Shown here: positions 19,747 to 46,887 of the stretch, piece after piece
Numbering within the stretch: position 1 is the first letter of the stretch
Layout: each line of letters begins with the position of its first letter
Virus record (IMG/VR): IMGVR_UViG_3300022752_005293
Coordinates: 1 to 59,675 of that record
Source of the DNA: a virus
Direction: 5' to 3' (one strand)
DNA length: 59,675 bases
Translations under genes and position numbers: made by a program
The notes under the pieces: model-generated
What the model saw: only the letters and a program-made list of their open reading frames with translations
Databases searched by the model: none
What the model was told of the DNA's origin: nothing

Positions 19747-20592
19747 ATGTCTAAATTAAAAGTAAGTGAATTATTTTATAGTATTCAAGGTGAGGGGCGT
19801 TATATGGGCGTTCCTAGTATATTTTTAAGAACGTTTGGTTGTAATTTCACTTGTGATGGTTTTGGTATGCTTAAGGGGGAAAAATCAAATGAACGAAATA
19901 TCATTGCCATAAATGCGAATCATTACAAAGATTATAAATCTTTGCCGCTTGTTACTACAGGTTGCGATAGTTATGCTAGTTGGGATGTTCGGTTTAAGCA
20001 TCTTAGCCCTCTGCTTACTATTGATCGCATTGTTGACGCCATTCTACGTATGCTACCTCGTGGTAGGTGGGCAAGTGAGCATCTTGTTATCACAGGGGGT
20101 GAACCGCTTCTTGGCTGGCAAAAATCATACCCTACGCTTTTATCGCACTCGGGCATGGTCGATCTACAAGAACTTACGTTCGAGACCAACGGAACACAAG
20201 AACTAATACCTGAATTTTCTGAGTACTTAAAGATACACTGGCGCAAAGGTTGGGATCGTCTTACTTTTAGTATTAGTCCCAAGCTAAGTGTTAGCGGCGA
20301 AAAATGGGATGATGCTATTAAACCAGAAATTATTCTTCAGTATGAAGAACATGGTTATGCCTATTTAAAATTCGTTGTAGCCAATGAAATCGATGTTGCT
20401 GAAGCAGAAATGGCAGTTGAGTGCTACAGAGATCATGGATTTAAGGGTCCAGTATATTTAATGCCTGTCGGTGGGGTAGAATCGGTATATGCTATGAACA
20501 ATAAGAATGTAGCATTGATGGCAATGAAAAAAGGATGGCGTTATTCTGATAGGCTTCAGGTGCCATTGTTTAAAAATGAATGGGGAACATAA
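19747..20592 (+). CDS. queE: QueE, 7-carboxy-7-deazaguanine synthase (radical SAM)
   Basis: This 281-residue radical-SAM enzyme converts 6-carboxytetrahydropterin to 7-carboxy-7-deazaguanine. The N-terminus KVSELFYSIQGEGRYMGVPS is the QueE signature, and TGGEP sits at 116-120. The cluster cysteines are Cys32, Cys36 and Cys73: the third is displaced by a 36-residue insertion, so the canonical CxxxCxxC spacing is absent. FETNGTQ and SPKLSVSG complete the family pattern. It begins a block with folE, queD and a DpdA-like enzyme. Confidence 0.9.
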   Translation: MSKLKVSELFYSIQGEGRYMGVPSIFLRTFGCNFTCDGFGMLKGEKSNERNIIAINANHYKDYKSLPLVTTGCDSYASWDVRFKHLSPLLTIDRIVDAILRMLPRGRWASEHLVITGGEPLLGWQKSYPTLLSHSGMVDLQELTFETNGTQELIPEFSEYLKIHWRKGWDRLTFSISPKLSVSGEKWDDAIKPEIILQYEEHGYAYLKFVVANEIDVAEAEMAVECYRDHGFKGPVYLMPVGGVESVYAMNNKNVALMAMKKGWRYSDRLQVPLFKNEWGT

Positions 20593-20792
20593 TGAAAATT
20601 ATAGATAGAGACGATTTTAAAATGTATGTTCTTATAGGTGAATGCAAGGCACCCAACGAATTAAAAATTATTCATTTTATAAGAGAAGAACTTGACAAAG
20701 ATGAAAATATTATAATTAGAAATACATATGAATTTTTTATGAAAAAAAATGAGATAAAAAAATTAGCGAAAGTATTGAATGACTACAAATAA
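20592..20792 (+). CDS. Small hypothetical protein (66 residues)
   Basis: The ORF starts at ATG 20592, overlapping the queE stop (TAATG). An upstream in-frame ATG at 20580 would add four residues inside queE. The product is charged and helical (DRDDFKMYVLIGECKAPNE, then KKNEIKKLAKVLNDYK) with no recognised motif. It overlaps folE by 14 bases, so it is translated within the queE-folE operon. Confidence 0.6.
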   Translation: MKIIDRDDFKMYVLIGECKAPNELKIIHFIREELDKDENIIIRNTYEFFMKKNEIKKLAKVLNDYK

Positions 20793-21528
20793 ATTAGTTG
20801 AAGAAGCGCCTTATCATCCTGGTTACGAATGTGCAGTATTTAGTGATCCCGTGGGTCGTCCCATGAGTCTAGTGATTCGAGAAAGATTAAAGGAAAGCAA
20901 TTCTAGATTTTTTGCCAATGACAATATCTCCGAATTTATTGAAAACGAAGATGAAATAGATGCGCTTGTTGAAGAAGTAGCAGAAAAATTTCAAGGTGTT
21001 CTTCACTCATTGGTGATTGACACTCACAATGATCACAACACGCAGGATACTGCACGTCGTGTGGCTAAGATGTTTGTGAAAGAAACTTTCAAAGGTCGTT
21101 ATGCTAGTCCACCCAAGGTAACTGCATTTCCGAATGTAACTGAATACGATGAGTTGTATGTTACTGGCCCAATTACAATTAGGAGTACCTGTGCCCATCA
21201 TTTTCAAAACATTGTTGGTAAAGCCTATATTGGCGTATTTCCGGGGAAGAATGTTATCGGTCTTAGTAAATTTAATCGTATCACGGATTGGATCGCCTCT
21301 CGTCCGCAGATTCAGGAAGAAATGACTGTTCAGATTGCTGATGCTATTGAAAGTGAAACGCAGGCCGATGGTGTTGCTGTATTAGTGCAAGCTGAACATC
21401 ATTGCATGACTCACAGAGGAGTTAAAGAACATGAGTCGGACATGACTACCTCTGTCATGAGAGGGGCATTTAGAAATGATCCTCATCTTAAACAAGAATT
21501 TTTCAGTATTATTCATAAAATGAAATGA
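20779..21528 (+). CDS. folE: GTP cyclohydrolase I, FolE
   Basis: This 249-residue protein makes 7,8-dihydroneopterin triphosphate from GTP, the first step towards deazaguanines. Zinc-site residues are visible in STCAHH (Cys138, His141) and HHCMTHRGV (Cys209). GKVYIGVFPG-like and GLSKFNRI strands and a QADGVAVLVQAEH segment match the family. The N-terminal about 50 residues are extra relative to the minimal enzyme. It lies between queE and a membrane protein gene. Confidence 0.93.
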   Translation: MTTNKLVEEAPYHPGYECAVFSDPVGRPMSLVIRERLKESNSRFFANDNISEFIENEDEIDALVEEVAEKFQGVLHSLVIDTHNDHNTQDTARRVAKMFVKETFKGRYASPPKVTAFPNVTEYDELYVTGPITIRSTCAHHFQNIVGKAYIGVFPGKNVIGLSKFNRITDWIASRPQIQEEMTVQIADAIESETQADGVAVLVQAEHHCMTHRGVKEHESDMTTSVMRGAFRNDPHLKQEFFSIIHKMK

Positions 21529-21876: not shown

Positions 21877-23247
21877 ATGAAAATCTTTAGTAAAAGAATA
21901 GCATTTTGTATTAGTGATCAACATACTATTCCTCATGGAGGCCTCGGGCAATTTGCAAAAAGCTTTGTTGAGACTTTCACTCCAATGGGATTTAAGATAG
22001 ATATTATTTGTGATAAATCTCCTTCTAATTTGGATTTTAAAAGAAGCCTTATTGAATCTGGTGCTTCGTTTATTTACCCATCAGAGCCTATTACTTATAG
22101 TAAACATAGTAAAATCTTTATGTTTGAGGATTCTTACAATTTTGAAAAGATGATTAATTTTAGAGATGCTATGATGCAGGCTCTAAATACTAATTTATAC
22201 GACACTATCATTTGTAATACTTTAGAATCATTTCCTGCAGTGCATTCTTTAAGTTTGCAGAAATCAATACAAGTTATTTACTATACTCATAATGAAAGTA
22301 TGGTTTTCCTAGATGATAGAACTTGGAGAAATGAATTTTCTCATTCATTTAATAATTTTTTCAATGTTCTTCTTTCTTGCAGTAATATTCAAGTAGGCAC
22401 TCAAACAGAAAGAAATAAAATGGAGTTATTAAACAATAGAATACCTGCTTATCTATTACCCATTCCTATGACAGAAAAATCTTTATTGAATAAGCATATC
22501 AAATCTCGTGAAGGTGTTCTATGGATCGGTAGATGGGAACCTAGAAAAAATCCTGAAGAATTTATAAGAGTGATACAAGAAACGAAACTACCAGCAAAGG
22601 TAATTACCAACACCAATGGTGCCAAAAAATTTGAACAAGCATTAACAGAGATTTGCGCAGATTTTCAAATTAAAATAGGCGTCTACGGTAAGGAAAAAGT
22701 TGACTTTCTCACATCTGCCAGAGTAGCATATAATCCTGCAATTAGAGAATCTTTTGGTTTGGCATTTTATGAAACTGCTGGCCATATGCCAACCGTCGTT
22801 CTAGAAAATATGAGTTGGATAAAGAATTTTCCGTCTGAATACTATTATTCCACCACTAAAAAAGATGCATCAGAAAAAATCAAAACTTTATATGAAATAA
22901 TGGTGGATGGAACATATCATTATGAAAAACATATACTTGATAAAATAATTCAAAATAATCAAGAAGGCATACAAAGATGGGTGGATATGTTTGATAATTT
23001 TATACCTTCTAAATCTGATAGTGATAGGGCAAGAATAAATCAAGAGCGAACCGTTTGTTACAAAGATTTTATAAAAGGCTTAAACAGAAAAGATTTATCT
23101 ATAGATGATATCAAATCTGTATTGACAAACAAGCATAAGTATAATACAATTTATACTAATGACAATACTTATCTCTCTAAAGACAAAAACTTTATACCAA
23201 ACGAAAAGACAAACGAGTCTGCAAGTCTCGAGGATTTATTTGCATGA
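21877..23247 (+). CDS. GT-B glycosyltransferase with clamp-binding-like C-terminus
   Basis: This 456-residue GT-B (family 4-like) protein has a Gly-rich opening HTIPHGGLGQFAKSF, a middle VLWIGRWEPRKNPEEFI that starts the donor domain, and VAYNPAIRESFGLAFYETAGH with the E-x7-E donor-binding motif. The last residues are NESASLEDLFA, resembling the C-terminal sliding-clamp peptides of T4-like phages. The next gene, a DpdA-like transglycosylase overlapping by 4 bases, ends SLEELFA. I infer a DNA-acting glycosyltransferase; a surface-glycan role is the alternative. Confidence 0.8.
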   Translation: MKIFSKRIAFCISDQHTIPHGGLGQFAKSFVETFTPMGFKIDIICDKSPSNLDFKRSLIESGASFIYPSEPITYSKHSKIFMFEDSYNFEKMINFRDAMMQALNTNLYDTIICNTLESFPAVHSLSLQKSIQVIYYTHNESMVFLDDRTWRNEFSHSFNNFFNVLLSCSNIQVGTQTERNKMELLNNRIPAYLLPIPMTEKSLLNKHIKSREGVLWIGRWEPRKNPEEFIRVIQETKLPAKVITNTNGAKKFEQALTEICADFQIKIGVYGKEKVDFLTSARVAYNPAIRESFGLAFYETAGHMPTVVLENMSWIKNFPSEYYYSTTKKDASEKIKTLYEIMVDGTYHYEKHILDKIIQNNQEGIQRWVDMFDNFIPSKSDSDRARINQERTVCYKDFIKGLNRKDLSIDDIKSVLTNKHKYNTIYTNDNTYLSKDKNFIPNEKTNESASLEDLFA

Positions 23248-24530
23248 GTAAAATATTTGAGTATTCTATTTCCGGGCCTGCGTACTTACGCTTAGGAGCT
23301 GAACAATGTAATGATCCAGAAACATTGGAAATGATAAAAAGTATGATTTTGAAGACATGTCATAATCAAAATAATCATACACTTTCTTTACTATATAATG
23401 GATTTACGGAAAAGAATTTTGGTGAAAAATTACAAAAGTATAGACCCGCCATTAAACAGATTCATGCTGACTCCGGCGGATTGCAAATTATTACTAGGGG
23501 ATTAAAAAATACTCCAGAGCTGAGAGAAAAGGTTTATACTAACCAGGGCACATATGCGGATATTGGTATGGCTTTCGATGAGATTCCGGTTAAAGCAACT
23601 CAAGACGGCAGATCATCTAAGATTGATACGAAGCGTAGATATTTTGATAGAGAAAATTTTGAAGATTATGCTACACAAACTGGCAAAAATGTTAGAGCAC
23701 AAATAGAGAAATTTGCTGAACTAAAATCTAACTGTAGACCTTTTGTGATTATGCATGGAGCATCTCACGATACATATCAGCATTGGGCAGAAACAATTCT
23801 TCGAGAAGTTTCAGAACCATTGCATGATAAGATTGGTGGTGTAGCCATGGGATCAGCGGCCCTAGGCATGGGTCAGTTAGAAGATGTAAAGAGAGCATTT
23901 TATGTTACCCTTATGCCTTTCAGTAGACCTTTTCATCTACATGTATTAGGTGTCGGCGCATTACGACGTATGTTGCCTTATCTTTTATTTAGCCAAACAG
24001 GATTGTATGATGGAATTGATATCTCATATGATTCTACCACACATTCTATGTCACTTGATAATGGTTTATTCTATTTTTCTCACTATAAGAAGTCGCCAGG
24101 ATCTGCATATGGAGGTACATCAGTTAAGATGGGGAGAGAATACTCCAACATCTATAGAACAGTTACAGAAGAAATCAATTTAGTATGCGGGACAGAGTAT
24201 GCCCCTGAAGAATATCATAAATTAATGAACAAACAAGTTACTGCTTATATAGAAGAAGGTGGCAAATTCATTGATATTATGCGAGCAAGACTTGCCTTTA
24301 TTCTTACCAATATTCACAATTTTACTAAAGATGTTTCAGAACTTACGCAATCAAAAGAACAATTTTTAAAATTTGCAAGAGAAAAAGATTGCGAAAATGA
24401 ATACGCTACATTATTTGATGTTAAAAATTTAGATGATTTTTTACACTGGGAAAAACACGTAGGTTGTCATATGGATTCAGAATCTGTTGCAGATAAACCA
24501 CCTTCATCACTAGAGGAATTATTCGCATGA
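23244..24530 (+). CDS. dpdA: DpdA-like DNA base transglycosylase (TGT superfamily)
   Basis: This 428-residue protein is in the tRNA-guanine transglycosylase superfamily. DSGGLQ (Asp76) corresponds to the DSGGFQ catalytic motif, HVLGVGA (233-239) to the GVGTP loop, and GIDISYDSTTH (257-267) to the nucleophile Asp region. The CxCxxC-H zinc site of bacterial TGT is not visible. Phage members of this type (DpdA) exchange guanine for a 7-deazaguanine in DNA. With folE, queD and queE nearby, DNA rather than tRNA is the likely target. The C-terminus is SLEELFA. Confidence 0.8.
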   Translation: MSKIFEYSISGPAYLRLGAEQCNDPETLEMIKSMILKTCHNQNNHTLSLLYNGFTEKNFGEKLQKYRPAIKQIHADSGGLQIITRGLKNTPELREKVYTNQGTYADIGMAFDEIPVKATQDGRSSKIDTKRRYFDRENFEDYATQTGKNVRAQIEKFAELKSNCRPFVIMHGASHDTYQHWAETILREVSEPLHDKIGGVAMGSAALGMGQLEDVKRAFYVTLMPFSRPFHLHVLGVGALRRMLPYLLFSQTGLYDGIDISYDSTTHSMSLDNGLFYFSHYKKSPGSAYGGTSVKMGREYSNIYRTVTEEINLVCGTEYAPEEYHKLMNKQVTAYIEEGGKFIDIMRARLAFILTNIHNFTKDVSELTQSKEQFLKFAREKDCENEYATLFDVKNLDDFLHWEKHVGCHMDSESVADKPPSSLEELFA

Positions 24531-27108: not shown

Positions 27109-27615
27109 ATGGCTTTTATAAATTTACCGCATCCCTACAAATACGTTAGTACAAAAGAATACCATGATGCTTTCCCATGCGCTTATAGACAATGGAGAGC
27201 AGATAGTCACTGTAATATGATTCATGGTTATAGTTTTAGTATGAAGTTTTATTTCGGGACAGATAACTTAGATGTTCGTAACTGGGCAGCTGATTATGGT
27301 GGTCTCAAAGAACTAAAGAAAATTCTTGAGAATCAATTTGATCACACTTTATTAGTTGCTGAAGATGACCCTGAATTAGAAACATTTAGATTATTACAAG
27401 AAAAGAAAATGGCCAAGCTAACTATTCTACCTCGTTTAGGATGTGAAGGTTTGGCTGATATGCTTTATAAGTATGTCAATGGTGTTTATATACCGGATAT
27501 GTGGGGCCCAGGTGAAGCAGAAAGACTATGGTGTTTTAGAGTTGAAGTCAGAGAAACACAATCTAATATGGCTTACAGAGAAGGCCATAGACACTGGAAC
27601 GAGGTATTATTATAA
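27109..27615 (+). CDS. queD: QueD-like 6-carboxytetrahydropterin synthase
   Basis: This 168-residue protein matches the phage QueD type: FPCAYRQWRADSHCNMIHGY, DYGGLKELK, FDHTLLVAEDDPE and GCEGLADML. The catalytic Cys (Cys35), His79 and Glu113 motifs are present. The zinc His residues are only partly conserved: the A-H-R of ordinary QueD reads CAYRQ and HGH reads HGY (His39, Tyr41). It should convert dihydroneopterin triphosphate to 6-carboxytetrahydropterin for QueE. A 59-bp gap with a Shine-Dalgarno (AGAGGCAAGAG) precedes it. Confidence 0.85.
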   Translation: MAFINLPHPYKYVSTKEYHDAFPCAYRQWRADSHCNMIHGYSFSMKFYFGTDNLDVRNWAADYGGLKELKKILENQFDHTLLVAEDDPELETFRLLQEKKMAKLTILPRLGCEGLADMLYKYVNGVYIPDMWGPGEAERLWCFRVEVRETQSNMAYREGHRHWNEVLL

Positions 27616-27617
27616 CA

Positions 27618-28199
27618 ATGCTTAAAGTTTATAAAAATCTTATTTCGCAGAACACCGCAGATTCTATCTATCATTCTTTGATGTCATTCATTATAAATGA
27701 TAGCCAACATTATTTTGAGTTTAGCAATTCTGCTACAAATAATAAGTCTTGGGGCTACATGAATTTACCTGAAACTTATCTAGAAATAGATAGAATAAAA
27801 AGTTTCGTAGAAAAAGATTTTGGTGACGAATATGAATTTACTCACACTTATTCTAGAATATACCCTGCTGGGGGTATTTTAAATCCTCATATAGATAGAG
27901 AGGGTCTGGATTTAACATTGACACTTAATGTTCATAGTGATGTAAATAATCCATGGCCAATTCTTTTTTCTAAAAAAACATTTGACACGGTATTAAATGA
28001 TATACATATATACACTGTCGGTGACTCTGAATCATACGAATTGTTTAAAGAATATACTAAAGATTTTGAAAGTGTAATTTTAAACGAAGGCGATGGTGCT
28101 TGCTGTACTAGAGATGTACCTCATTGGAGAGAACCCTTCAATGTAAAATTTGAGGGAGAGCATTATGGGCAAGTATTTTATCACTGGAAACGTAAATGA
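27618..28199 (+). CDS. 2-oxoglutarate/Fe(II)-dependent oxygenase-like protein
   Basis: This 193-residue protein has a double-stranded beta-helix iron site: HIDREG (His91, Asp93), the distal His169 in DVPHWREPF, and Arg171 as a likely 2-oxoglutarate ligand. YSRIYPAGGILNPH and LTLTLNVHSD resemble prolyl-hydroxylase-like phage proteins. Its place directly after queD suggests it may oxidise a modified base or sugar, but protein hydroxylation is equally possible. It is the last gene of the block. Confidence 0.75.
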   Translation: MLKVYKNLISQNTADSIYHSLMSFIINDSQHYFEFSNSATNNKSWGYMNLPETYLEIDRIKSFVEKDFGDEYEFTHTYSRIYPAGGILNPHIDREGLDLTLTLNVHSDVNNPWPILFSKKTFDTVLNDIHIYTVGDSESYELFKEYTKDFESVILNEGDGACCTRDVPHWREPFNVKFEGEHYGQVFYHWKRK

Positions 28200-28433
28200 A
28201 AATTTTATTAAGGCAACTCAGTGGAGATAAAATATGAATAATAAAGATCGAATAGAATTTTGAATAAAAAATAACTGATAATAGAAATCACTCAAAAACG
28301 CAAGTTATAAATTAAAAACGAAATAAAAAATTAATGGAGACACCTTCTAACTCTGCGATGTGGATGAATAATATCAAAAAATAGCTTTTTATAAATAATC
28401 ATTGAACACACCGAATATATTTAGGAGTTGTCA
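28200..28433 (+). other. Noncoding / decayed 234-bp gap before the HNH gene
   Basis: No reading frame longer than about 20 codons fits here. A Shine-Dalgarno-like GGAG followed by ATG at 28234 gives only MNNKDRIEF, and ATG 28333 gives METPSNSAMWMNNIKK. Both could be relics of small genes. A late promoter lies at 28390. This is the longest gene-free stretch in the window. Confidence 0.6.
28390..28397 (+). promoter_or_regulatory. T4-type late promoter before the HNH gene
   Basis: TATAAATA lies 36 bases upstream of the HNH endonuclease ATG, with TTTAGGAGTTG as Shine-Dalgarno in between. It gives the endonuclease its own late transcript. Confidence 0.72.
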
Positions 28434-29099
28434 ATGATAAAAAATAAATACTATATCTGGTATTTTAATCTTATAGAAAAAGCAAAAAAAAGAAATAATT
28501 TACAAGAATATGAAACACATCATATAATACCTAGATTTGCAGGTGGTTTAGATGATGATAATAATTTAGTACGTTTATCCTACAGAGAGCATTACATTTG
28601 TCATAAGATACTAACTAAATTATACGCGGGGCCTTTAAAGGCAAAAGCATTTTTGTCATTACATAGAATGTGTTTTGCTAAAAAGTATGGTTCACCTTCT
28701 AAATTATATGAACAATTTAGAAAAGAATTTATTAAGCATTTAAAAGAATATCATCCTTCTAGATTAAATCCTGAATCTTGGTCTCAAACTTGTAAAATAA
28801 ATGCTAAAAAACAATGGCAAAATAACGAAGAAAGAAGAAAAAACTTTTCTGATAAAATGAAATCTCTTTGGAAAGAGGGAAAAATTACGCCAGAAATGTC
28901 AAGAAAAAATGGTAAACATAATAAGTTTGGTATTTTAAATCACAAAACTATAGAAATAGAATATAAAGGAAAAATATATTATGGTTATAGAGAATTAGAA
29001 GAAGCGACAGGAGTAACTGGATATCTATATATAAAATATTACAAACATGGGATAGATCCTGAATCTAGAATAGGTAAGAATGGCCCTGTTCCTAAATAA
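28434..29099 (+). CDS. HNH homing endonuclease
   Basis: This protein (221 residues from ATG 28434) has an N-terminal HNH domain: ETHHIIPRFAGG at 27-38, DDDNNLVRLSYREH, then His57. A lysine-rich middle and a C-terminal segment (YRELEEATGVTGYLYIKYYK) look like a NUMOD-type DNA-recognition helix. Free-standing HNH genes in T4-like phages insert next to conserved genes and spread by homing. Here it sits directly before gene 47, after a decayed gap, with its own late promoter. Confidence 0.88.
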   Translation: MIKNKYYIWYFNLIEKAKKRNNLQEYETHHIIPRFAGGLDDDNNLVRLSYREHYICHKILTKLYAGPLKAKAFLSLHRMCFAKKYGSPSKLYEQFRKEFIKHLKEYHPSRLNPESWSQTCKINAKKQWQNNEERRKNFSDKMKSLWKEGKITPEMSRKNGKHNKFGILNHKTIEIEYKGKIYYGYRELEEATGVTGYLYIKYYKHGIDPESRIGKNGPVPK

Positions 29100-29128
29100 C
29101 TTAAGATTATATCTTGAAAGGAGGTCGT

Positions 29129-30176
29129 ATGAAGATTTGTCTTTTAGGCGACACGCATTTTCGGTGTTAGAAATGATTCTAAAACATTTCATAATTATTA
29201 TAAAAAATTCTACAATCTATTCTTTGAATATGTAGATAACAACGAAATTGAAAATATTATTCAACTGGGTGATTTATTTGATAGAAGAAAATACATAAAT
29301 TTTTTAACATTATCTGAATCAAAAAAATATTTCTTTGATAAAATTGAGGATAGAAGTATTCGTCTAGTCTCCTTACTCGGTAATCATGATATTTTTTGGA
29401 AAGAAAGTTTATCAGTCAATTCACCTGATCTATTACTTGAAAACTATAACTATATTGAAATAGTTAGAAAACCGAGTACCATTAAAATACATAATACAGA
29501 CATAGATATTATTCCTTGGATTTGTAAGGAAAACGAAGAAGAGGTTTTTGAATTCGTAACTAATTCCAAATCCAAAGTATGTATGGGGCACTTTGAACTA
29601 TCTGGGTTTGAGATGATGAAAGGAATCCCTAAGTATGATGGCATTGACGGTAAATTCTTAAGCAATTATACTAAGGTTTTTAGTGGGCATTATCATACAG
29701 CATCATCAAAGGGTAATATAACTTATCTCGGCACACCTTATGAATTGACGTGGTCTGATTATAAGGATCCAAAAGGGTTTTACGTTTTCGATACAGAGAC
29801 TAATGAAGTAGAATTTATTAAAAATCCATTTTCTATGTATGAGAAAATTTACTATAATGATGAAGAGCAATTAGAAATAGATTATAATAATTTTGAGGAA
29901 AAATTCTTAAAAGTTATTGTTGTCAATAAAACCGATTATTCTAAATTTGATACTTTGATAGACAATCTCTATAAGATAAACCCCGCCGAGATAAAAATTA
30001 TCGAGGATATGTCTGAATTTGAAAGTTCATCTGTTGATGATAATTTAAATCTAGAAGATACTATGACATTACTATCTGAGTATGTGGATGGCATTGAAAC
30101 AGATGCAGACAAAGTAAAATTAAAAACTCTACTCAGAGAATTATATGTCGAAGCACATGACTATGAGGAAACATGA
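29129..30176 (+). pseudogene. gp47: gp47 recombination nuclease subunit, interrupted by a one-base frameshift
   Basis: The start (ATG 29129, strong Shine-Dalgarno AAAGGAGGT) encodes MKICLLGDTHFRC then a stop at 29168-29170. Dropping one T from the TTTT run at 29158-29161 restores a frame that stays open to 30176 and carries every Mre11-type metallophosphoesterase motif: GDTHF, GDLFDRR, GNHD, MGHFE and SGHYHTA. Joined length is about 348 residues, as in the family. gp47 with gp46 resects double-strand breaks. The stop overlaps gp46 (ATGA). It is either a real mutation or a homopolymer sequencing error; programmed +1 shifting is less likely. Confidence 0.85.
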
Positions 30177-31885
30177 TTCACTTTAAAACTATTCGCTGGC
30201 GTAATTTTTTATCAACAGGAAATCAGTTTACAGAAGTATCATTAAATAAATATCATACCACATTAGTAATAGGTGAGAATGGTGCCGGCAAGAGTACTAT
30301 TCTTGATGCTATTTGTTTCGGCTTGTTTGGTAAAGCGTTTAGAAATATTAATAAGCCTCAACTTGTAAATTCGATTAATCAAAAAAATTGTACTGTCGAA
30401 ATTGAATTTAGTATTGGGAAAAAAGAATATAAAATTATACGAGGTATGAGACCAGGCATATTTGAAATATATCAAGATAATATTCTATTGAATCAAGATG
30501 CAGCTGTAAAAGATTATCAAAAGTATTTCGAAGATAAGATTTTGAAGCTTAATTTTAAATCTTTTACTCAGATTGTTATACTTGGATCAGCTTCCTTTAC
30601 TCCTTTCATGCAATTAGCACAGGGAATACGAAGAGAAGTAATAGAGGATATCTTAGATATTCAAATTTTTAGTGTAATGAATACTATATTGAAAACTCGT
30701 ATAACTGAAATGCGAGATAAAATAAGAGAAATAGATTCCAAAATAGAAATAGGAAAACAAAAAGTTAAGTTGCAACAAGATTATATTAAACAACTAGAAA
30801 ATGATCTTAAGAAAAGAAATGAAGATATACAATTTAAAATTGATAAAGCCTACGAAGATATCCAACTCCTTGAAGAAGAGAATAACCAAATCACGGGACA
30901 ATACAACATTCTCTCGAATTCGGTTAAAGATGATAACGAGATCAATACCAGAAGAAATGAGATGGCATCTCTTTACAAATCATTGCAAGCAAGAATTAAA
31001 AAAGTTGAAAGTGATATCTTATTCTACGAAGAACATGACTCATGCCCGACTTGTTCTCAAATTATACCTACAGAACTTAAAACTATTACAATCGGCAAAC
31101 ATACTCACAAAAAAGAAGAAATCGGTAATGCAGTTAATACGCTCTACAACAAAATGCAAGAGGTTGAAAATAGAGCTAATGAAATCATTGAAACAAAACA
31201 GCAAATCGTTACACTACAAACAAGTATCACAGAAACAAACGCAAAAATTATTGCACAACAAAAATATATAAAAGCGTTACAATCAGAAACTAAAGATGAA
31301 GCTGATTCAAAAGACAGTTTGACTAATGCCAAGGGGGCACTCAAAGATATTGCCAAAGAAGTAGTATCAATCTCAGAAAGTAAAAGTAAACTCAAAGAAG
31401 ACTCGTATTATTTTGACGCCGCTTCCACACTACTCAAAGATACTGGAATAAAGACTAGAATTATAAAACAATACCTGCCAGTTATTAATAAATTAGTAAA
31501 TAAATACCTAACAGCAATGGACTTTTTTGTTTCATTTGAATTAGATGAAGCATTCAATGAAACAATTAAATCAAGACATAGAGATGACTTTAGTTATGCA
31601 TCATTCTCTGAAGGGGAAAAACAAAGAATAGATTTGGCATTACTATTCACTTGGAGAACTATTGCCAAGATGAAAAATAGTGCCGCTACCAATCTATTAT
31701 TATTGGATGAAGTATTTGATTCCAGTCTTGATTCCAACGGTACTGAATTTGTGATGAATTTACTTAATACATTAGGTGAAGATGTAAATGTGTTTGTGAT
31801 CTCACATAAAGGAGATCAATTGCTAGATAAATTTAAGAATCAAATTCGTTTTGAAAAATATCAAAATTTTTCTAGGATAGTGTAA
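30173..31885 (+). CDS. gp46: gp46 recombination endonuclease subunit (SbcC/Rad50-like)
   Basis: This 570-residue SMC-like ATPase has Walker A GENGAGKST at 34-42, two coiled-coil arms around a zinc hook SCPTCSQ near residue 290, the signature FSEGEKQRIDLA near 475 and Walker B NLLLLDEVFDSSLD near 505. It partners gp47 in DNA end resection and host DNA degradation. It is intact, which makes the broken gp47 reading frame upstream notable. The coiled coils are short, as usual for phage gp46. Confidence 0.95.
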   Translation: MIHFKTIRWRNFLSTGNQFTEVSLNKYHTTLVIGENGAGKSTILDAICFGLFGKAFRNINKPQLVNSINQKNCTVEIEFSIGKKEYKIIRGMRPGIFEIYQDNILLNQDAAVKDYQKYFEDKILKLNFKSFTQIVILGSASFTPFMQLAQGIRREVIEDILDIQIFSVMNTILKTRITEMRDKIREIDSKIEIGKQKVKLQQDYIKQLENDLKKRNEDIQFKIDKAYEDIQLLEEENNQITGQYNILSNSVKDDNEINTRRNEMASLYKSLQARIKKVESDILFYEEHDSCPTCSQIIPTELKTITIGKHTHKKEEIGNAVNTLYNKMQEVENRANEIIETKQQIVTLQTSITETNAKIIAQQKYIKALQSETKDEADSKDSLTNAKGALKDIAKEVVSISESKSKLKEDSYYFDAASTLLKDTGIKTRIIKQYLPVINKLVNKYLTAMDFFVSFELDEAFNETIKSRHRDDFSYASFSEGEKQRIDLALLFTWRTIAKMKNSAATNLLLLDEVFDSSLDSNGTEFVMNLLNTLGEDVNVFVISHKGDQLLDKFKNQIRFEKYQNFSRIV

Positions 31886-35908: not shown

Positions 35909-36664
35909 ATGTTTGTACTAGATAATTTTGTTGTAATGGAATCAATGTATGGTAAATTTATAATCCCAAGACATTATACTCCAGGTCCCCCTACTCCGGA
36001 TCCAGCATCTACTATGCTTCGTACTGGAAAAACACATATTGAGGACGAGGTGCAAAATATTTTATATCTCGTTTCTCAATTACCAGACAATTCTATAGTT
36101 GTAGATGGTGGTGCAAATATGGGATTTTTTACTATCCCTGTTGCCCAAGCTTTGAAGAATAAAGGTGGCAAAATTATTTCTTTTGAACCGCAAAGGCAAA
36201 TTTATTATGCCCTTTGCGGTTCTTGTGCCTTAAATGAATTAGAAAATGTCTTTGTTCAAAATTTAGGTTTAGGTGAATCACAATCTATTGCTGAAGTATC
36301 AGATATTGATTACAGTGATAAAGTTGATTTTGGTATGGTCACTTTATCAGATAATGTCACTAAGAAAGAGCATGCTTTCTTAAGCAACAAAACTGTAAAA
36401 GTAATAACTTTAGACTCTATGGAGCTACCTAGTTTAGAATTTTTAAAGTTAGATGTGGAGGGGTATGAATGCCAAGCATTAAGGGGCGGATTAAAAACAT
36501 TAGAAAAATTTAGACCTATTATATGGATTGAGTATAACATGGCGGGCGAGAATAATATAAAAGAAGTTCTAAAGAGTGTGCAAAAATACAAATTTTTAAA
36601 AGTAGATTGGCAGAATATGCTTTGCATACCAGAAGAACTATGCAGTAGGTATAATATTAAATGA
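35909..36664 (+). CDS. FkbM-family methyltransferase
   Basis: This 251-residue SAM-dependent methyltransferase shows SIVVDGGANMGFFTIPVA (SAM-binding), IISFEPQRQIYYAL and LKLDVEGYECQALRGG, the FkbM pattern. It is the first gene of the glycan island, 9 bases after cobS, and probably O-methylates a sugar. It overlaps the next gene by 4 bases (ATGA), the style of the whole island. Confidence 0.88.
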   Translation: MFVLDNFVVMESMYGKFIIPRHYTPGPPTPDPASTMLRTGKTHIEDEVQNILYLVSQLPDNSIVVDGGANMGFFTIPVAQALKNKGGKIISFEPQRQIYYALCGSCALNELENVFVQNLGLGESQSIAEVSDIDYSDKVDFGMVTLSDNVTKKEHAFLSNKTVKVITLDSMELPSLEFLKLDVEGYECQALRGGLKTLEKFRPIIWIEYNMAGENNIKEVLKSVQKYKFLKVDWQNMLCIPEELCSRYNIK

Positions 36665-37446
36665 CCTCTTTAGTTCTTCATACGCATACTGGGCTCGGAG
36701 ATCATTTAATAACTAATGGTATGACTCATGCATTTGCTGAAAGATATGATAAGGTATACGTGATACATTTAAAAATGTTTACCGAATCTATTCAAGCTTT
36801 ATACAAGGGCTTTGATAAAATAGAAACAGTAGCTTTTCCAGATAAGGATATTAATTTATATCAAAGAGATAAAATTGCAGAATTAGCCAAAGACACTAAC
36901 TCAGAATTGATAAGTATCGCCGATCCATTTTTATATTATCCGAAAAGATTAGTATTAAATAAAGATAATGAACCGGTATTTATACATACTGCAATTAATT
37001 TTGATAGACAGTTTTATGAACTGGCAGGCATGCATTTTTCAATTAGATATGATATGTGTAAAATACCAAATAGCACTCAAAGATCAAAAGAAATACTCAT
37101 GGATCTAACTAAAGGACAAGATTTTAGATTAATTCATAATACGAGTAGTCAATCTAGTACTGGGTATCCTGTTAATATAGATATGGATTCACCTTTTACA
37201 AACCTGCCTACAATAGAAATTAGACCTGGTATTTCTAATAATATTTTTGATTTTGTGGATTTGATAAAAAATGCAAAGGAAATCCATACGGTAGGCAGTT
37301 TTTTTCATAATTTAGTAGATTGTATGACGGATAAAACGTCTGCTAGACTAGTATTTCATAATATTATGATGAAACACGAAACACAAATTAATTGCTTTTG
37401 GAATAATAATAGATGGTTGCAGATAGATTATAACAATAAATATTAA
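36661..37446 (+). CDS. Putative glycosyltransferase / sugar-related protein
   Basis: This 261-residue protein opens LVLHTHTGLGDHLITNGMTH, a Gly-rich loop like the start of GT-B enzymes of the heptosyltransferase type. No full donor domain can be confirmed by eye. It contains a NTSSQSSTGYPVN segment and IHTVGSFFHNLVDCM near the end, resembling the C-terminal 'I-x-x-DSS-x-x-H' site of such enzymes. It lies between the methyltransferase and gmd. Function is tentative. Confidence 0.55.
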   Translation: MTSLVLHTHTGLGDHLITNGMTHAFAERYDKVYVIHLKMFTESIQALYKGFDKIETVAFPDKDINLYQRDKIAELAKDTNSELISIADPFLYYPKRLVLNKDNEPVFIHTAINFDRQFYELAGMHFSIRYDMCKIPNSTQRSKEILMDLTKGQDFRLIHNTSSQSSTGYPVNIDMDSPFTNLPTIEIRPGISNNIFDFVDLIKNAKEIHTVGSFFHNLVDCMTDKTSARLVFHNIMMKHETQINCFWNNNRWLQIDYNNKY

Positions 37447-37460
37447 TTTAATGGATTATT

Positions 37461-38462
37461 ATGAAACGTGCGTTGATTACAGGAATAACCGGGCAGGATG
37501 GATCTTATCTTGCCGAACTACTTCTTAATAAAGATTATGAAGTGCATGGTATAGTAAGAAGATCTTCCAGTTTCAATACCAAAAGGCTAGATCACATCTA
37601 CCATAATAAAAATTTAAAACTTCACTATGGTGATGTGACTGATTCGTTGTCCTTAATAACTCTATTGAAAACACATAACTTTAATGAAATTTATAATCTT
37701 GCAGCACAGAGTCATGTAAAAGTTTCTTTTGATACACCAGAGTATACTGGGCAAGTTGATGCTATTGGCACACTTAGAATATTAGAAAGTGCTCGTTTGT
37801 TGAATTTACCCTGCAGGATTTATCAAGCATCTACTTCAGAACTTTTTGGATTAGTTCAAGAAGTACCTCAAAAAGAAACAACGCCTTTCTATCCTAGATC
37901 TCCATATGGTGTAGCAAAATTATATGCATATTGGATAGTAAAAAATTATAGAGAAGCATATAATATGTTTGTCTGTTCTGGTATTTTATTCAATCATGAG
38001 TCGCCCAGAAGAGGTAACACATTTGTTACGCAAAAAATAGTTCAGGGTCTTAAAGCTATAAAAGAGAGCAAAACAGATAGACCAGTTATGATGGGCAATC
38101 TCAATGCTATGAGAGATTGGGGGCATGCCAAAGATTATGTTGATGCTATGTGGTTGATGCTGCAGCAAAATAACCCCGAAGATTATGTAATAGCTACTGG
38201 CAAAATGTATTCTGTTAGATTTTTTGCGGAATTGGCTGCTTCATATTTTAATATGGAAATAGAATGGCAGGGAGAAGGCCTAGATGAAATTGGAATTGAT
38301 AAAATATCTGGCAGAACGGTGATTGCTGTAGATAAAAAATATTTTAGACCTGCAGAAGTAGATCAGTTATTAGGTGATGCATCTAAAGCGAGACTATGCC
38401 TAGGATGGCAACCTAGATATGATATTTATTCTTTAGTTGAGGATATGTGTATAAATGGATAA
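37461..38462 (+). CDS. gmd: GDP-mannose 4,6-dehydratase
   Basis: This 333-residue extended SDR matches Gmd: [53 protein letters not shown], catalytic YGVAK in [13 protein letters not shown], and [16 protein letters not shown]. It converts GDP-D-mannose to GDP-4-keto-6-deoxy-D-mannose, the shared precursor of fucose, colitose and perosamine. It overlaps fcl by 8 bases. Confidence 0.95.
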
Positions 38463-39372
38463 AAATAGCAGAATTTATGTAGCAGGTCACAACGGTTTAG
38501 TTGGGTCTGCCTTAGTCAGGGCTTTAGCAGTTCAGGGATATAAACATATCATTATGTCTGATAGCAGAGCAACTAATCTAATTAACAGATCAGAAGTTGA
38601 TCGTTTTTTCAATTGGAATAGACCTGAATATGTTTTTCTTGCTGCAGCAAAGGTAGGAGGAATACTTGATAATAGTATAAAGCCAGCAGAATACATTTAT
38701 AATAATTTGATGATTCAATGTAATGTGATAGATGCTGCATATAATTATGGGGTCAAAAAATTATTATTTCTTGGCTCATCTTGCATATACCCTAAACTTG
38801 CCAATCAACCAATAACAGAAGATCAATTACTATCCAGTTACTTGGAACCCACAAATGAAAGTTATGCTTTGGCAAAAATTGCGGGATTAAAGATGTGTCA
38901 AGCATATAATAAACAATATAAAACCAATTTTATATCTTGTATGCCCACTAATTTGTATGGACCAAAAGATAATTTCAATCCTCTTTCTAGCCATGTTGTT
39001 CCTGGACTAATTAGTAAATTTTTATCTGATACTGATGAGGTAGTTTGTTTTGGCGATGGTTCACCAAAGCGAGAATTATTGTATATAGATGATATGGCGG
39101 ATGCTTGTATATTTTTGATGAATAACTATAATGAAAATCAAACTATAAACATTGGTACGGGTGAGGATATTTCAATAAAAGAATTAGCGATTATTATAAA
39201 AGAGCTTACTAATTATAATGGTAATATTGTATGGGATACAACTAAACCAAATGGCACTCCTCGTAAGGTTTTAGATGTATCGAGAATTCATAATCTAGGT
39301 TGGAAACATAAAACTTCTTTAAGAGAGGGGTTAATGAAAACTATACAGTGGTATAGGGAAAATAAACTATGA
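38455..39372 (+). CDS. fcl: GDP-L-fucose synthase (or GDP-L-colitose synthase)
   Basis: This 305-residue SDR has [36 protein letters not shown] and [19 protein letters not shown], the WcaG/Fcl pattern, and [12 protein letters not shown]. It epimerises and reduces GDP-4-keto-6-deoxymannose to GDP-L-fucose. With a ColD-like dehydratase next door it could instead finish GDP-L-colitose, since ColC belongs to the same family. Confidence 0.93.
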
Positions 39373-40544
39373 GAAAGAAATGGCCCTTGATGGGAGAATC
39401 TATTACTTTAGGTGATAGATTAAAAATGGCTTTATTCTGCCTTAGAGCTAAAAGATTTACATATGGAGATAATTTAAAAGCATTTGAGCAAGAATGGAAC
39501 GAATGGTTGTCACCAAATAACAATTCTATAAATTCTTTATACGTGTCCAGTGGCAGCACTGCTAATTTTTTATTAGTTGCTGCGATAATGGATTTGTTTA
39601 ATATTAAATCAGGAGATAAAATTTTATTACCTGCATGCACCTGGATGACTAATGTTTCCCCGGCATTGCAGTTAGGATTGACTCCTGTCTTCTGCGATGT
39701 TAATCTACAAAATTACAGTTTTGATCTAGATAATGCTAAACAGATAGCAAAAAAACATAAAGATATAAAACTTATTTTCGTAACACATTTGCTAGGATTT
39801 TCTGGAGATAATGAAAAGTTATCTGAAATTTTTCCCAATGCTTTAATTATAGATGATGTTTGTGAATCGCATGGATGTATAAGCCCGGATTTAACCAAAA
39901 GAGGATCTAATTCGTTAGGGGCCACCTTTAGTTTTTATTTTGGACATCATATGTCTACAGTTGAAGGAGGTATGATAACTACTAACAACTTAGAATTATA
40001 TGATTTAATGAGAATGAAAAGAAGTCATGGTTTGGCTAGAGAATCTACAAGGTTTGACTATTATAAGAATAAGTATTCTGATATAGATCCTCAGTTTTTG
40101 TTTATAACAGATGGTTATAATTTTAGAAACCATGAGATTCCTGCAGTTTTGGGCAGATCGCAATTGAAACGACTGGATAGTATGATTTTAATTCGTAGAA
40201 GAAATTATTCTTTATATTGTAAGTTAATAGAACAATTTTCAAATTTGTTTTATTCTCATGCATTTGAAAAAACAAATAGTAGTTTTTGTTTTCCTTTTAT
40301 TTGTAAAAATGCTGAAATTAGAAATAAACTAAGAATTTTATTAACAGAAAATAATATAGAACACCGACCTATTGTTGCAGGAAATCTTTTATCTCAACCG
40401 TTTCTTCAAGGACATAAAATAGAAACCTCTAAAAAGATTGCTAATGCTGAAATTATTCACAGGCAAGGAATATATATAGGAAACAATCATTTTGTCTCTG
40501 AACAAGATATGGCATTCTTGGGTGAACTATTTAGTAAAATATGA
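39369..40544 (+). CDS. ColD-like PLP-dependent sugar 3-dehydratase (DegT/DnrJ family)
   Basis: This 391-residue fold-type I enzyme has SGSTANFLLV, LPACTWMTNVSPAL and IIDDVCESHG. The usual catalytic Lys is replaced by His193 in SFYFGHHMSTVEGG. That replacement defines the GDP-4-keto-6-deoxymannose 3-dehydratase (ColD) type, which removes the 3-hydroxyl instead of transaminating. With gmd and fcl directly upstream this fits GDP-colitose synthesis. A perosamine-type aminotransferase is unlikely because Lys is missing. Confidence 0.8.
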   Translation: MRKKWPLMGESITLGDRLKMALFCLRAKRFTYGDNLKAFEQEWNEWLSPNNNSINSLYVSSGSTANFLLVAAIMDLFNIKSGDKILLPACTWMTNVSPALQLGLTPVFCDVNLQNYSFDLDNAKQIAKKHKDIKLIFVTHLLGFSGDNEKLSEIFPNALIIDDVCESHGCISPDLTKRGSNSLGATFSFYFGHHMSTVEGGMITTNNLELYDLMRMKRSHGLARESTRFDYYKNKYSDIDPQFLFITDGYNFRNHEIPAVLGRSQLKRLDSMILIRRRNYSLYCKLIEQFSNLFYSHAFEKTNSSFCFPFICKNAEIRNKLRILLTENNIEHRPIVAGNLLSQPFLQGHKIETSKKIANAEIIHRQGIYIGNNHFVSEQDMAFLGELFSKI

Positions 40545-41413
40545 AAAAACTTAAATTAGGGTTTACTGACACTCATGACCATTTAGCTAGATTTTTTTAT
40601 TCTATACTTTCCACTCGGTATGTAATAGAAGTAGATAATATTAATCCGGATTATCTAATTTTTGGTGATAATAATTTTGGCAATAACAATCTTAGATATG
40701 ATAAGAATAAAGTAACTAAGATTTTTTACACTGGTGAAAATCAAAGACCAGAAAATTATGATTGTCATTATGCTATTTCATTTGATCATGTCTATGAGCC
40801 ATGGCATTATAGATTACCATTATTTGTAATCTATATGTGGGCATGGAAATATATTCATAACATGAATTATGATATGGATTACATTTTACGCGATTTGGAT
40901 GTAACAGAAAAAACATCATTCTCCTCTTTTGTAGTTTCTAATCCTAATTGTCAAGAAAGAAATGATTTTTTTAAAATGCTAAATGACTATAAAACTGTAG
41001 ATAGTGGGGGTAGATTATTCAATAATATACAAGTAAAGCTAGATGGAGAACAAAGTAAAATAGACTTTTTATCTTCGCGAAAGTTTAATATTTGCTTTGA
41101 ACCTTATAAATATCCAGGATATACTACAGAAAAAATAGTACATGCTTTTTATGCTGGAACTATTCCTATTTACTGGGGCAATGAATTGGTGACATCTGAT
41201 TTTAATAATGATTCTTTTATTAATGTTCATGATTTTGATTCTTTTGATTCTGCCATGGACTACATAATAAAAGTAGATAATGATAAAAAACTTTATAATG
41301 AAATAGTGAAGGCCCCAAAATTCATTAACAATATTCCTCCATCTTATTTAATTTTAGATAATTTTTTAAATTGGTTTGATGCTGTGGTATACAATAAAAT
41401 TTTACAACGATGA
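40541..41413 (+). CDS. GT10-family (alpha-1,3-fucosyltransferase-like) glycosyltransferase
   Basis: This 290-residue protein carries the GT10 donor-site block: KFNICFEPYKYPGYTTEKI, then AGTIPIYWGN and NDSFINVHDF. GT10 enzymes use GDP-L-fucose or related GDP-6-deoxysugars, exactly the products of the three genes just upstream. It overlaps them by ATGA, so donor synthesis and transfer are co-expressed. The acceptor is unknown. Confidence 0.88.
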   Translation: MKKLKLGFTDTHDHLARFFYSILSTRYVIEVDNINPDYLIFGDNNFGNNNLRYDKNKVTKIFYTGENQRPENYDCHYAISFDHVYEPWHYRLPLFVIYMWAWKYIHNMNYDMDYILRDLDVTEKTSFSSFVVSNPNCQERNDFFKMLNDYKTVDSGGRLFNNIQVKLDGEQSKIDFLSSRKFNICFEPYKYPGYTTEKIVHAFYAGTIPIYWGNELVTSDFNNDSFINVHDFDSFDSAMDYIIKVDNDKKLYNEIVKAPKFINNIPPSYLILDNFLNWFDAVVYNKILQR

Positions 41414-42117
41414 AAATACAAACTTTTATATTCAATTGGAATGGACAATATAACAAAACCTTAGACAAGAAAGACCAGCTTAAGGCCATTGGTGTTGATC
41501 CCATCATTATTAATAGTGATGAAGCATTTTATCTAGATGATTGGCACAATATTGGCGAAAAAGCTTATTTTACTGCACAGTTTATGAAAGCATTAGAGTT
41601 GTTTGACGGAGATGCTTTATTCCATATACAAGGCGATGCAAGTTACGAACGTTGGGCAGATCTTATAGATGATGCGAAAAAATATTATAAAGAATATAAT
41701 TGGGGTATATACGCTCCTAATATTGATTATACTTGGTATGTAGCATCTAAAACAGATTTAGATATGTTTACTATAGACGAGACTCCCCTTAAAATGGTGG
41801 CTACACCTGATTGCACTTGTTGGTTTATACATAAGAATATAATTGATGAGGCAAATAATCGTAAAGTAAACTTTGCGCCATATAAATGGGGTTGGAGCTT
41901 TGACTTAGTATATTCTGCTTTATCTCATATGATGAAACGCCCAGTATTAAGAGATTATTCTCATACAGTACAACATCCGCTCGGCACAAACTATGCTAAA
42001 GATGAGGCCGAAAAAGAAATGATGGATTTGTATAAGTCTTTACCTAAGGATATACAAGAAGCCTTTTACTATATCAAATCTGATAAAGATAGTCTGGCAA
42101 AATACTACGCAGAATGA
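41410..42117 (+). CDS. Putative GT-A-like glycosyltransferase
   Basis: This 235-residue protein starts MKIQTFIFNWNGQYNKTLDK, typical of GT-A enzymes of the family-2/25 kind. FDGDALFHIQGDASYERW is in the position of a metal-binding acidic motif. ATPDCTCWFIHKNII and APYKWGWSFDLVYSA follow. I do not know its donor. It is coupled by ATGA on both sides. Confidence 0.6.
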   Translation: MKIQTFIFNWNGQYNKTLDKKDQLKAIGVDPIIINSDEAFYLDDWHNIGEKAYFTAQFMKALELFDGDALFHIQGDASYERWADLIDDAKKYYKEYNWGIYAPNIDYTWYVASKTDLDMFTIDETPLKMVATPDCTCWFIHKNIIDEANNRKVNFAPYKWGWSFDLVYSALSHMMKRPVLRDYSHTVQHPLGTNYAKDEAEKEMMDLYKSLPKDIQEAFYYIKSDKDSLAKYYAE

Positions 42118-43046
42118 GAATAGATTACATTACAGCTAATGATAAAATAGGCGAAATCATTTGTAAAGGTGAGCCAGCAAGTATATTAAGATTGGACAAT
42201 ACTGCAGGTTTTATTGTACAGTTAAAACTAAAAAATGAATCTCCCCCATCTGAGCATTTCAACGAATCTACATTAATACAAGGCGGAATTCATCCCCACG
42301 ATCCTGCCTATTATTGGGACGTAATATTACCCGAAATTATAAAAGTAATGCATCAGGCTGATATATTAGGTATTACAGATGTAACTGATACTTTTAATAA
42401 TTGTGTGCCCGAAGATCATGTTGTAATAAAGGAATTTAAGAATCAACCAATATTTGGAGGTAATTCTATTTTAGTTATGGATCCTGGCGGATTACTGGGT
42501 TACGCTAAAGAATTTTTTGGAATACCCGAAGCTATTAATCCATGGACAGCAAAACTAAAGAATAAAAAAGTTTTAGTTATTTCCACTCATGCTGAATCTA
42601 TTAAATATCAATATAATAAATTAGATAAAATTTGGGGGAATAAAAGAGAAGTTATAGCGCCATTTGAATTGGCAGGAGTTATTAGAAGCCCTTATCATCC
42701 TTTAATGGATAACAGACAATATCCTAATTGTAATCATTGGGGAGATACTGTAAATTATATAATGAAAGAAATTGAAAAATATGATTTTGATGTTCTTTTG
42801 GCAGGTGCTTCTACATCCTCGGTATTTTATGCTCAGCATGCAAAAGAATTGGGAAAGATAGGGATACAAACTGGGGGAGTGGTTCAATTAATGTTCGGTA
42901 TTTTGGGATACAGATGGACAAAGGTTCTCGGGTATAGTCAATGGAACAAAATGTATAATGAACATTGGATTTATCCTTTAGAAATAGATGAAGCCCAAAA
43001 TAGAAAGAAAAACATGCATTTAGAAACAAATTTTGCTTATTGGTAA
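42114..43046 (+). CDS. Putative GT-D-fold-type glycosyltransferase
   Basis: This 310-residue protein has a C-terminal half with KNKKVLVISTHAESIKYQY, FDVLLAGASTSSVFYAQHAK and IQTGGVVQLMFGILGYRW. This resembles the GT-D (DUF1792-like) or related bacterial glycosyltransferase domains that share 'G-G-x-x-Q-L-x-FGI-x-G-x-RW'. The N-terminal half has no clear motif. It precedes the RfbH-like gene by one base. Confidence 0.6.
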   Translation: MRIDYITANDKIGEIICKGEPASILRLDNTAGFIVQLKLKNESPPSEHFNESTLIQGGIHPHDPAYYWDVILPEIIKVMHQADILGITDVTDTFNNCVPEDHVVIKEFKNQPIFGGNSILVMDPGGLLGYAKEFFGIPEAINPWTAKLKNKKVLVISTHAESIKYQYNKLDKIWGNKREVIAPFELAGVIRSPYHPLMDNRQYPNCNHWGDTVNYIMKEIEKYDFDVLLAGASTSSVFYAQHAKELGKIGIQTGGVVQLMFGILGYRWTKVLGYSQWNKMYNEHWIYPLEIDEAQNRKKNMHLETNFAYW

Positions 43047-43047
43047 T

Positions 43048-44367: not shown

Positions 44368-44374
44368 GGATTTT

Positions 44375-46885: not shown

Positions 46886-46887
46886 TT

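What the first reader, a model, noticed from the sequence alone, without database searches (positions are those of the whole stretch)
29129..29170. Gene 47 broken by one extra T near its start
Translation from ATG 29129 stops after 13 codons. Removing one T in the run 29158-29161 restores an otherwise intact gp47 with all phosphoesterase motifs up to 30176. gp46, the obligate partner, is intact and coupled downstream. It is either an error in the assembly, a very young mutation, or a rare +1 frameshift at CAT-TTT-C.
Basis: seen in the sequence. Interest (0 to 1): 0.7.

Follow-up and report, generated by a model that had tools for sequence, protein, structure and literature searches.

The report
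Mobile cassette with a programmed frameshift
The extra base in phage gene 47 is neither an assembly error nor a fresh mutation: the same shifted site, with a conserved RNA hairpin and a strong ribosome-binding site, recurs in dozens of distantly related phages, often beside a selfish DNA-cutting gene, so the ribosome is probably built to slip there, which nobody appears to have reported.

Summary
ATG 29129 gives MKICLLGDTHFRC*, and the rest of gp47 lies in the +1 frame to 30176. It is not an assembly error or a young mutation. Three IMG/VR contigs whose gp47 is 62-71% identical carry the same shifted start, and 58 shifted gp47 loci were assembled in all. The shift always falls at UUU_C or UUU_U inside the active-site motif DTHF^G. 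Cultured Caulobacter phage Cr30 has it too; GenBank lacks its first 47 codons.

Shifted genes share features that in-frame homologues lack:
- an AGGAG-type Shine-Dalgarno (50/57 against 2/168);
- a covarying hairpin whose 3' arm ends 6 nt before the UUU (0/500 shuffles);
- a homing endonuclease, or its C-terminal remnant, directly upstream (27/58 against 0/169).

Shifted genes stay under purifying selection, and the frame state changes at least 28 times on the gp47 tree. In the window, remnants of the original gp47 start and of a donor gene flank the endonuclease.

Best reading: a mobile homing-endonuclease cassette that carries a programmed +1 frameshift element, working like T4 MobA/gene 60 but with different parts. 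Frameshifting itself, its efficiency, and immunity to the endonuclease as the reason for the extra base are inferred, not measured.

The parts
28196..28210 (+). ATGAAAATTTTATTA, probable remnant of the phage's own original gp47 start, left upstream of the cassette
   Evidence: Read directly. In the closest in-frame relative L002 gp47 starts at this place, right after the dioxygenase gene. Inferred.
28332..28373 (+). Remnant of the 3' end of a donor's QueD/PTPS gene (METPSNSAMWMN), carried in with the cassette
   Evidence: 95% nt identity over 43 nt to L011 and 83% to L010, where this is the end of the gene directly before gp47.
28434..29099 (+). HNH-type free-standing homing endonuclease (a TTG start at 28428 is also possible)
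   Evidence: PHROG 655 homing endonuclease E 3.7e-31. Pfam gives no hit for this protein. Seed of the HNH HMM.
29116..29124 (+). Extended Shine-Dalgarno GAAAGGAGG
   Evidence: Read directly. AGGAG-type SD in 50/57 shifted against 2/168 in-frame gp47 loci.
29124..29128 (+). 5' arm of the conserved hairpin (GUCGU), between the SD and the AUG
   Evidence: Covarying stem. Covariance-model match at 29116-29164, 42.7 bits.
29129..29170 (+). Zero-frame leader ORF MKICLLGDTHFRC with stop TAG 29168-29170; encodes the Asp and His of the GDTHF motif
   Evidence: Translation.
29148..29152 (+). 3' arm of the hairpin (GCGAC), ending 6 nt before the slip codon
29159..29164 (+). Slip site UUU_CGG: UUU in the P site, the rare codon CGG in the A site, +1 to UUC
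   Evidence: Every distinct shifted gp47 has UUU_C (38) or UUU_U (18) and none any other word. CGG is 7 of 17,893 codons counted in the window.
29163..30176 (+). Body of gp47 (SbcD/Mre11-like nuclease subunit) in the +1 frame
30173..31885 (+). gp46 (SbcC/Rad50-like partner), intact, start overlapping the end of gp47

Best explanation
Gene 47 is expressed by a programmed +1 ribosomal frameshift early in the gene. The frameshift element is the 3' end of a mobile cassette spread by a homing endonuclease. A homing endonuclease entered the 5' end of gp47 and brought its own version of the first 11 codons: a strong Shine-Dalgarno, a hairpin that encloses the start codon, and one extra base after Phe-11. 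SHOWN by comparison: the element recurs, its hairpin covaries, its slip word is always UUU_C or UUU_U, it goes with homing endonucleases, it moves between distantly related phages, and gp47 stays under purifying selection with it. [quoted passage not shown] The 5' hairpin re-forming behind the ribosome, and/or the Shine-Dalgarno that the hairpin brings close to the slip codon, pushes the slip in the + direction. INFERRED and less sure: the extra base is kept because it spoils the endonuclease's target in a motif whose amino acids cannot change, while frameshifting restores the protein.
For: (1) The shifted start is shared with L005, L006 and L010, whose gp47 is 62-71% identical to the window's, against in-frame DTHF^G in 76 other relatives. 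(2) A pattern allowing any one inserted base after Phe finds gp47 genes only with UUU_C (38 distinct) or UUU_U (18 distinct). UUU_C is enriched against the Phe codon use of in-frame genes (p 7e-6). (3) A stem between the SD-AUG spacer and the codons up to the Asp codon: pairing energy with the own partner -7.2 against -4.4 +/- 0.3 when arms are swapped among 45 shifted genes; no such pairing in 154 in-frame genes (-1.2 against -1.3). Covariation 0/500 shuffles, 92-95% of cells paired, and lost when the partner is slid. (4) SD 50/57 against 2/168. (5) HNH or GIY-YIG endonuclease, or a C-terminal remnant, upstream in 27/58 shifted against 0/169 in-frame loci, p 3e-19. An unseeded Pfam scan agrees: HNH 6 and GIY-YIG 3 of 51 against 0 of 75. 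(6) At least 28 changes of frame state on the gp47 tree; the endonuclease goes with the shift in every informative independent pair. (7) pN/pS 0.06-0.32 in shifted pairs, 0.06-0.26 in in-frame pairs, including sisters that share the shift (L248/L257, L205/L235). (8) L254 (shifted) and L375 (in-frame): 92-98% identical downstream, 76% in the leader. (9) Remnants in the window of the original start and of a donor flank. (10) Cultured phage Cr30 has the whole element.
Against: No protein or reporter evidence; efficiency is unknown. About half of the shifted loci have no recognisable endonuclease or remnant. In-frame gp47 with an endonuclease overlapping its start exists in cultured phages QL01, Pinarejo and TG1 (motif DWHLG, no UUU there), so the extra base is not the only way to live with such an endonuclease. 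An unrelated phosphoesterase gene in L151, L173 and L180 has the same element with no endonuclease next to it. The window's own sequence alone folds slightly better another way; the hairpin rests on comparison. Both endonuclease HMMs were seeded from shifted loci, though the Pfam scan was not.
Confidence: 0.88

Rival explanations
1. Assembly or sequencing error, or a very young disabling mutation in one phage.
For: A single-base length change in a run of four T is a classic place for error. No reads were available here.
Against: The same shift in dozens of contigs from many metagenomes and in cultured Cr30, with a covarying hairpin, strong SD and endonuclease linkage; purifying selection in shifted sister genes.
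Confidence: 0.01
2. gp47 is dead: the homing endonuclease broke it on arrival, and the phages live with a pseudogene or use the host's SbcCD.
For: The zero-frame product is only 13 residues. T4-like phages may vary in their need for gp46/47 (general knowledge).
Against: Downstream frames stay open for about 340 codons. pN/pS equals that of in-frame genes even in sisters sharing the shift. A covarying hairpin and SD would not be kept in a dead gene. Endonuclease-free loci keep the element.
Confidence: 0.04
3. The shift is real but corrected in RNA synthesis: RNA polymerase slips on the short U run, helped by the nascent hairpin, giving a mixture of mRNAs, some in frame.
For: Hairpin-dependent transcriptional slippage exists (reviewed in PMC5009743). 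The hairpin ends 6 nt before the U run.
Against: UUU_C has only three or four U; reported polymerase slippage uses longer runs (five A plus five G, or nine A/T). The U[C/U] restriction and the rare A-site codon fit tRNA re-pairing better.
Confidence: 0.04
4. Translation of the body starts anew inside gp47 in the +1 frame, as GenBank annotates Cr30 (TTG, codon 48).
For: GenBank CDS AGS81034.1 starts at L382:2606.
Against: The first start codon listed in the window's +1 frame is at 29583. The skipped stretch is conserved as protein, and the leader with its Asp and His metal ligands (ligand role from general knowledge of Mre11/SbcD) would be useless. It leaves the slip-word restriction and hairpin unexplained.
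Confidence: 0.03
5. A programmed frameshift that regulates the gp47:gp46 ratio, with the endonuclease linkage secondary (the endonuclease favours the site or travels with it) and no role in immunity.
For: About half of the shifted loci show no endonuclease. The element also occurs in an unrelated phosphoesterase. In-frame gp47 with an overlapping endonuclease exists.
Against: 0 of 169 in-frame DTHF-type loci have an endonuclease. The element arrives by recombination many times.
Confidence: 0.3

Closest known systems
T4 MobA homing endonuclease and the gene 60 translational bypass (mobile DNA cassette; described in the review PMC5009743)
   Same: A free-standing homing endonuclease next to an essential DNA gene carries a recoding signal that lets the ribosome cross a foreign insertion; the insertion is thought to protect from the endonuclease; a 5' stem-loop is among the stimulators (PMC11194080).
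   Different: Here one extra base and a +1 slip at UUU_Y, not a 50-nt hop between GGA codons. The hairpin lies around the start codon. HNH and GIY-YIG endonucleases occur with it, the target gene is gp47, and it recurs in dozens of phage lineages.
Bacterial release factor 2 (prfB) +1 frameshift
   Same: P-site slip in the + direction early in the gene, with the functional protein in the new frame and a Shine-Dalgarno-type stimulator upstream (PMC5009743).
   Different: [quoted passage not shown] the SD is about 35 nt upstream and only a hairpin brings it near. No autoregulatory logic is evident.
UUU_CGN +1 frameshift class (influenza A PA-X, amalgaviruses; PMC3498833)
   Same: The same core UUU_CGN, with P-site tRNA-Phe re-pairing to UUC and a slow A-site Arg codon.
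   Different: In bacterial viruses; with upstream hairpin and SD; UUU_U also used; the shift product is the main functional protein rather than a minor extra.
Free-standing homing endonucleases beside gp47 in cultured Tevenvirinae (QL01, Pinarejo, TG1)
   Same: Same insertion place, endonuclease end overlapping the gp47 start; TG1 keeps a second gp47 5' fragment upstream, as the window does.
   Different: gp47 is in frame (motif DWHLG; codon 11 is Leu, so no UUU slip).

Membership tests
Programmed +1 ribosomal frameshift | Two ORFs in 0 and +1 register that together make one conserved protein | tested here: met
Programmed +1 ribosomal frameshift | Conserved slippery word that allows P-site re-pairing | tested here: met
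   UUU_C or UUU_U only
Programmed +1 ribosomal frameshift | Conserved stimulatory element | tested here: met
   Covarying hairpin and SD; that they stimulate is not tested
Programmed +1 ribosomal frameshift | Frameshift product observed | not testable with these tools
   Needs proteomics or a reporter
Free-standing homing endonuclease | Endonuclease domain of a homing family | tested here: met
   PHROG 655 E 3.7e-31; HNH/GIY-YIG relatives
Free-standing homing endonuclease | Occupied and empty alleles of the same site in related phages | tested here: met
   Window/L002, L010/L011, L254/L375
Free-standing homing endonuclease | Cuts the empty allele and not its own | not testable with these tools
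   In vitro assay needed
MobA/gene 60 bypass cassette | Non-coding insert between identical take-off and landing codons | tested here: not met
   Only one extra base; no such insert
[quoted passage not shown]
   A-site codon CGG; SD about 35 nt upstream
Group I intron | Intron RNA fold between exons | tested here: not met
   No Rfam match except a tRNA

The most novel reading that the evidence does not exclude
A widespread class of mobile recoding cassette in phages: HNH and GIY-YIG homing endonucleases spread a +1 programmed-frameshift module (SD, start-codon-enclosing 5' hairpin, UUU_Y) into the active-site codons of gp47. The single extra base is itself the immunity determinant, because substitutions cannot hide a motif whose amino acids are fixed, and a 5' hairpin rather than a downstream structure drives the ribosome forward.
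Probability: 0.5. Interest if true: 0.92.

Novelty: new variant of a known kind. Interest (0 to 1): 0.85.

Why it matters
Gene 60 of T4 has long stood nearly alone as a recoding signal tied to a homing endonuclease. Here recoding and selfish endonucleases are linked repeatedly, across many lineages, in one of the core recombination genes of T4-like phages. That turns a curiosity into a testable rule: indel plus recoding as a way to live with an endonuclease that targets invariant codons. It also gives a clean natural series for asking how a 5' hairpin produces a +1 slip, with a cultured phage (Cr30) ready for experiment. Practically, gene callers are likely to truncate or miss gp47 in such phages, as happened in Cr30.

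Tried and rejected
One search used a pattern with one T too many and found nothing; corrected. The HNH protein as a query found only two distant relatives by seed matching; HMMs on upstream ORFs worked better. Structure downstream of the slip site: no clear excess over shuffles, and less than in in-frame genes. Group I intron: no Rfam hit. phmmer of the read-through gp47 against PDB: no match. The covariance model also scores in-frame gp47 starts at lower bits because it contains coding sequence, so the structural test rests, not on that search. Genome-contig scan for shifted gp47 in bacterial assemblies: one chance match only. Literature searches found no report of a frameshift in gp47; the library holds open-access papers only.

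Full report
WHAT IS THERE. The window is a 59,675-base IMG/VR virus record of T4-like gene content. Gene 47 starts at ATG 29129 behind a strong Shine-Dalgarno (GAAAGGAGG, 29116-29124). In that frame it reads MKICLLGDTHFRC and stops at 29168-29170. From GGT 29163 the +1 frame is open to 30176 and is plainly gp47/SbcD (PHROG 100). The slip register is CAT TTT C GGT.

IT IS SHARED. In a search of IMG/VR with the gp47 body, nearly all relatives read straight through GDTHF^G. Three (L005, L006, L010) have the window's 55 upstream bases almost letter for letter, including the extra base, although their gp47 bodies are only 62-71% identical to the window's. Pattern scans then found the same shift in many unrelated gp47 genes. 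When any single inserted base was allowed after the Phe codon, gp47 genes showed only UUU_C (38 distinct) or UUU_U (18 distinct), the two words on which tRNA-Phe can re-pair one base on. Lengthening of a T run would also give only these words, so this alone does not prove slippage; the excess of UUU_C over what the Phe codons of in-frame genes predict does point that way.

A CONSERVED ELEMENT. Shifted (F, 58 loci, some near-duplicates) and in-frame (N, 169 loci) genes were compared. F genes have an AGGAG-type SD in 50 of 57, N genes in 2 of 168. F genes have a stem between the SD-AUG spacer and the codons ending at the Asp codon, 6 nt before the slip UUU. It is present in essentially every F sequence with different bases: GUCAGU/ACUGAC, GUCGC/GGUGAC, UCACA/UGUGA, GUCUGU/ACAGAC, and GUCGU/GCGAC in the window. 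Swapping arms among F genes weakens the pairing by more than ten standard deviations; N genes show none. Named-structure counts agree, with 0 of 500 shuffles reaching the observed covariation and collapse when the partner is slid. The 18-sequence alignment was chosen for like geometry, and the 60-sequence one was fitted to the model; the arm-swap test depends on neither. No structure was found downstream of the slip site. The A-site codon CGG is 7 of 17,893 codons counted in the window, and no other in-frame TTTCGG occurs there.

LINK TO HOMING ENDONUCLEASES. The ORF before gp47 in the window is a homing endonuclease (PHROG 655). HMMs of HNH and GIY-YIG type, run over all ORFs upstream of F and N genes, match 27 of 58 F loci and 0 of 169 N loci (p 3e-19). 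Some matches are short C-terminal remnants right at gp47 (44 aa in L010, 35 in L255, 27 in L259): the endonuclease has gone but the shift stays. In several intact cassettes the endonuclease stop overlaps the gp47 start by 4 nt, and its last codons contain the SD and the 5' arm. On a gp47 tree the frame state changes at least 28 times, and in every informative independent pair the endonuclease goes with the shift. L254 and L375 are 92-98% identical downstream of the site but only 76% in the leader, and only L254 is shifted. The window itself keeps what looks like its original gp47 start at 28196-28210 and a scrap of a donor's QueD gene at 28332-28373, 95% identical to L011. In the closest relatives L002 and L004 the dioxygenase gene is followed directly by in-frame gp47.

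IT IS NOT A DEAD GENE. pN/pS in shifted pairs is 0.06-0.32, as in in-frame pairs (0.06-0.26), including sisters that share the shift by descent such as L248/L257 and L205/L235. Caulobacter phage Cr30, cultured and completely sequenced, has the element: SD, hairpin, MAKVAILNDIHF, UUU_CGG, then GTRSGSR. GenBank starts its gp47 at an internal TTG and so loses 47 codons.

MECHANISM. Shown: recurrence, slip-word restriction, covarying hairpin, SD, linkage, recombination at the site, selection. Inferred: P-site tRNA-Phe re-pairs UUU to UUC or UUU while CGG waits in the A site, as for UUU_CGU of influenza PA-X (PMC3498833). A hairpin re-forming in the mRNA exit region, or the SD it brings within about 6-9 nt of the slip codon, would favour movement in the + direction, as the internal SD does in prfB (PMC5009743). 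Inferred and weaker: the extra base protects the cassette from its endonuclease. Against this last point, cultured Tevenvirinae (QL01, Pinarejo, TG1) have an endonuclease at the same place with in-frame gp47, but their motif is DWHLG, which offers no UUU. TG1 retains a second gp47 5' fragment upstream of its endonuclease, which supports the insertion scheme.

COMPARISON. It works like the T4 MobA/gene 60 cassette (PMC5009743) but is not that: there is no 50-nt hop. It is not prfB-type, having no A-site stop and no adjacent SD. The slip core is that of the UUU_CGN class. I found no report of it in the papers searched, which are open-access only.

LIMITS. No protein evidence, no efficiency, no cleavage data, no reads.

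Noticed in passing
L382:2467-3556 (Caulobacter phage Cr30, KF301602.1): The GenBank gp47 CDS (AGS81034.1) starts at an internal TTG and lacks the first 47 codons because of the +1 site.
   Followed up: yes
L151, L173 and L180 (IMG/VR contigs): An unrelated small metallophosphoesterase gene (MIYLIADTHF^GHxNII) has the same SD, hairpin and UUU_CGG +1 site, with no endonuclease directly beside it; L173 has an HNH-like ORF about 0.8 kb upstream.
   Followed up: partly
L385:723-872 (Yersinia phage TG1): A duplicate 5' fragment of gp47 lies upstream of a GIY-YIG endonuclease inserted before an intact in-frame gp47. QL01 and Pinarejo have GIY-YIG-like proteins annotated as HNH at the same place.
   Followed up: partly
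Shifted leaders, Thr and His codons before UUU: CAC is preferred over CAT (41:8 against 83:74 in in-frame genes) and ACT is rare; this may reflect an E-site effect on slipping or endonuclease contacts.
   Followed up: no
window 19747-20592, 20779-21528, 23244-24530, 27109-27615: QueE-like, GTP cyclohydrolase-like, transglycosylase (DpdA-like) and QueD-like genes: looks like a 7-deazaguanine DNA modification set. Only the QueD-like gene was checked.
   Followed up: no
window 36661-52594: A long run of sugar-nucleotide, aminotransferase and glycosyltransferase-like genes, unusual in amount for a T4-like phage; judged from the ORF translations only.
   Followed up: no
L119:14170-14464: A second, in-frame metallophosphoesterase with a strong SD in the same contig as a shifted gp47.
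   Followed up: no
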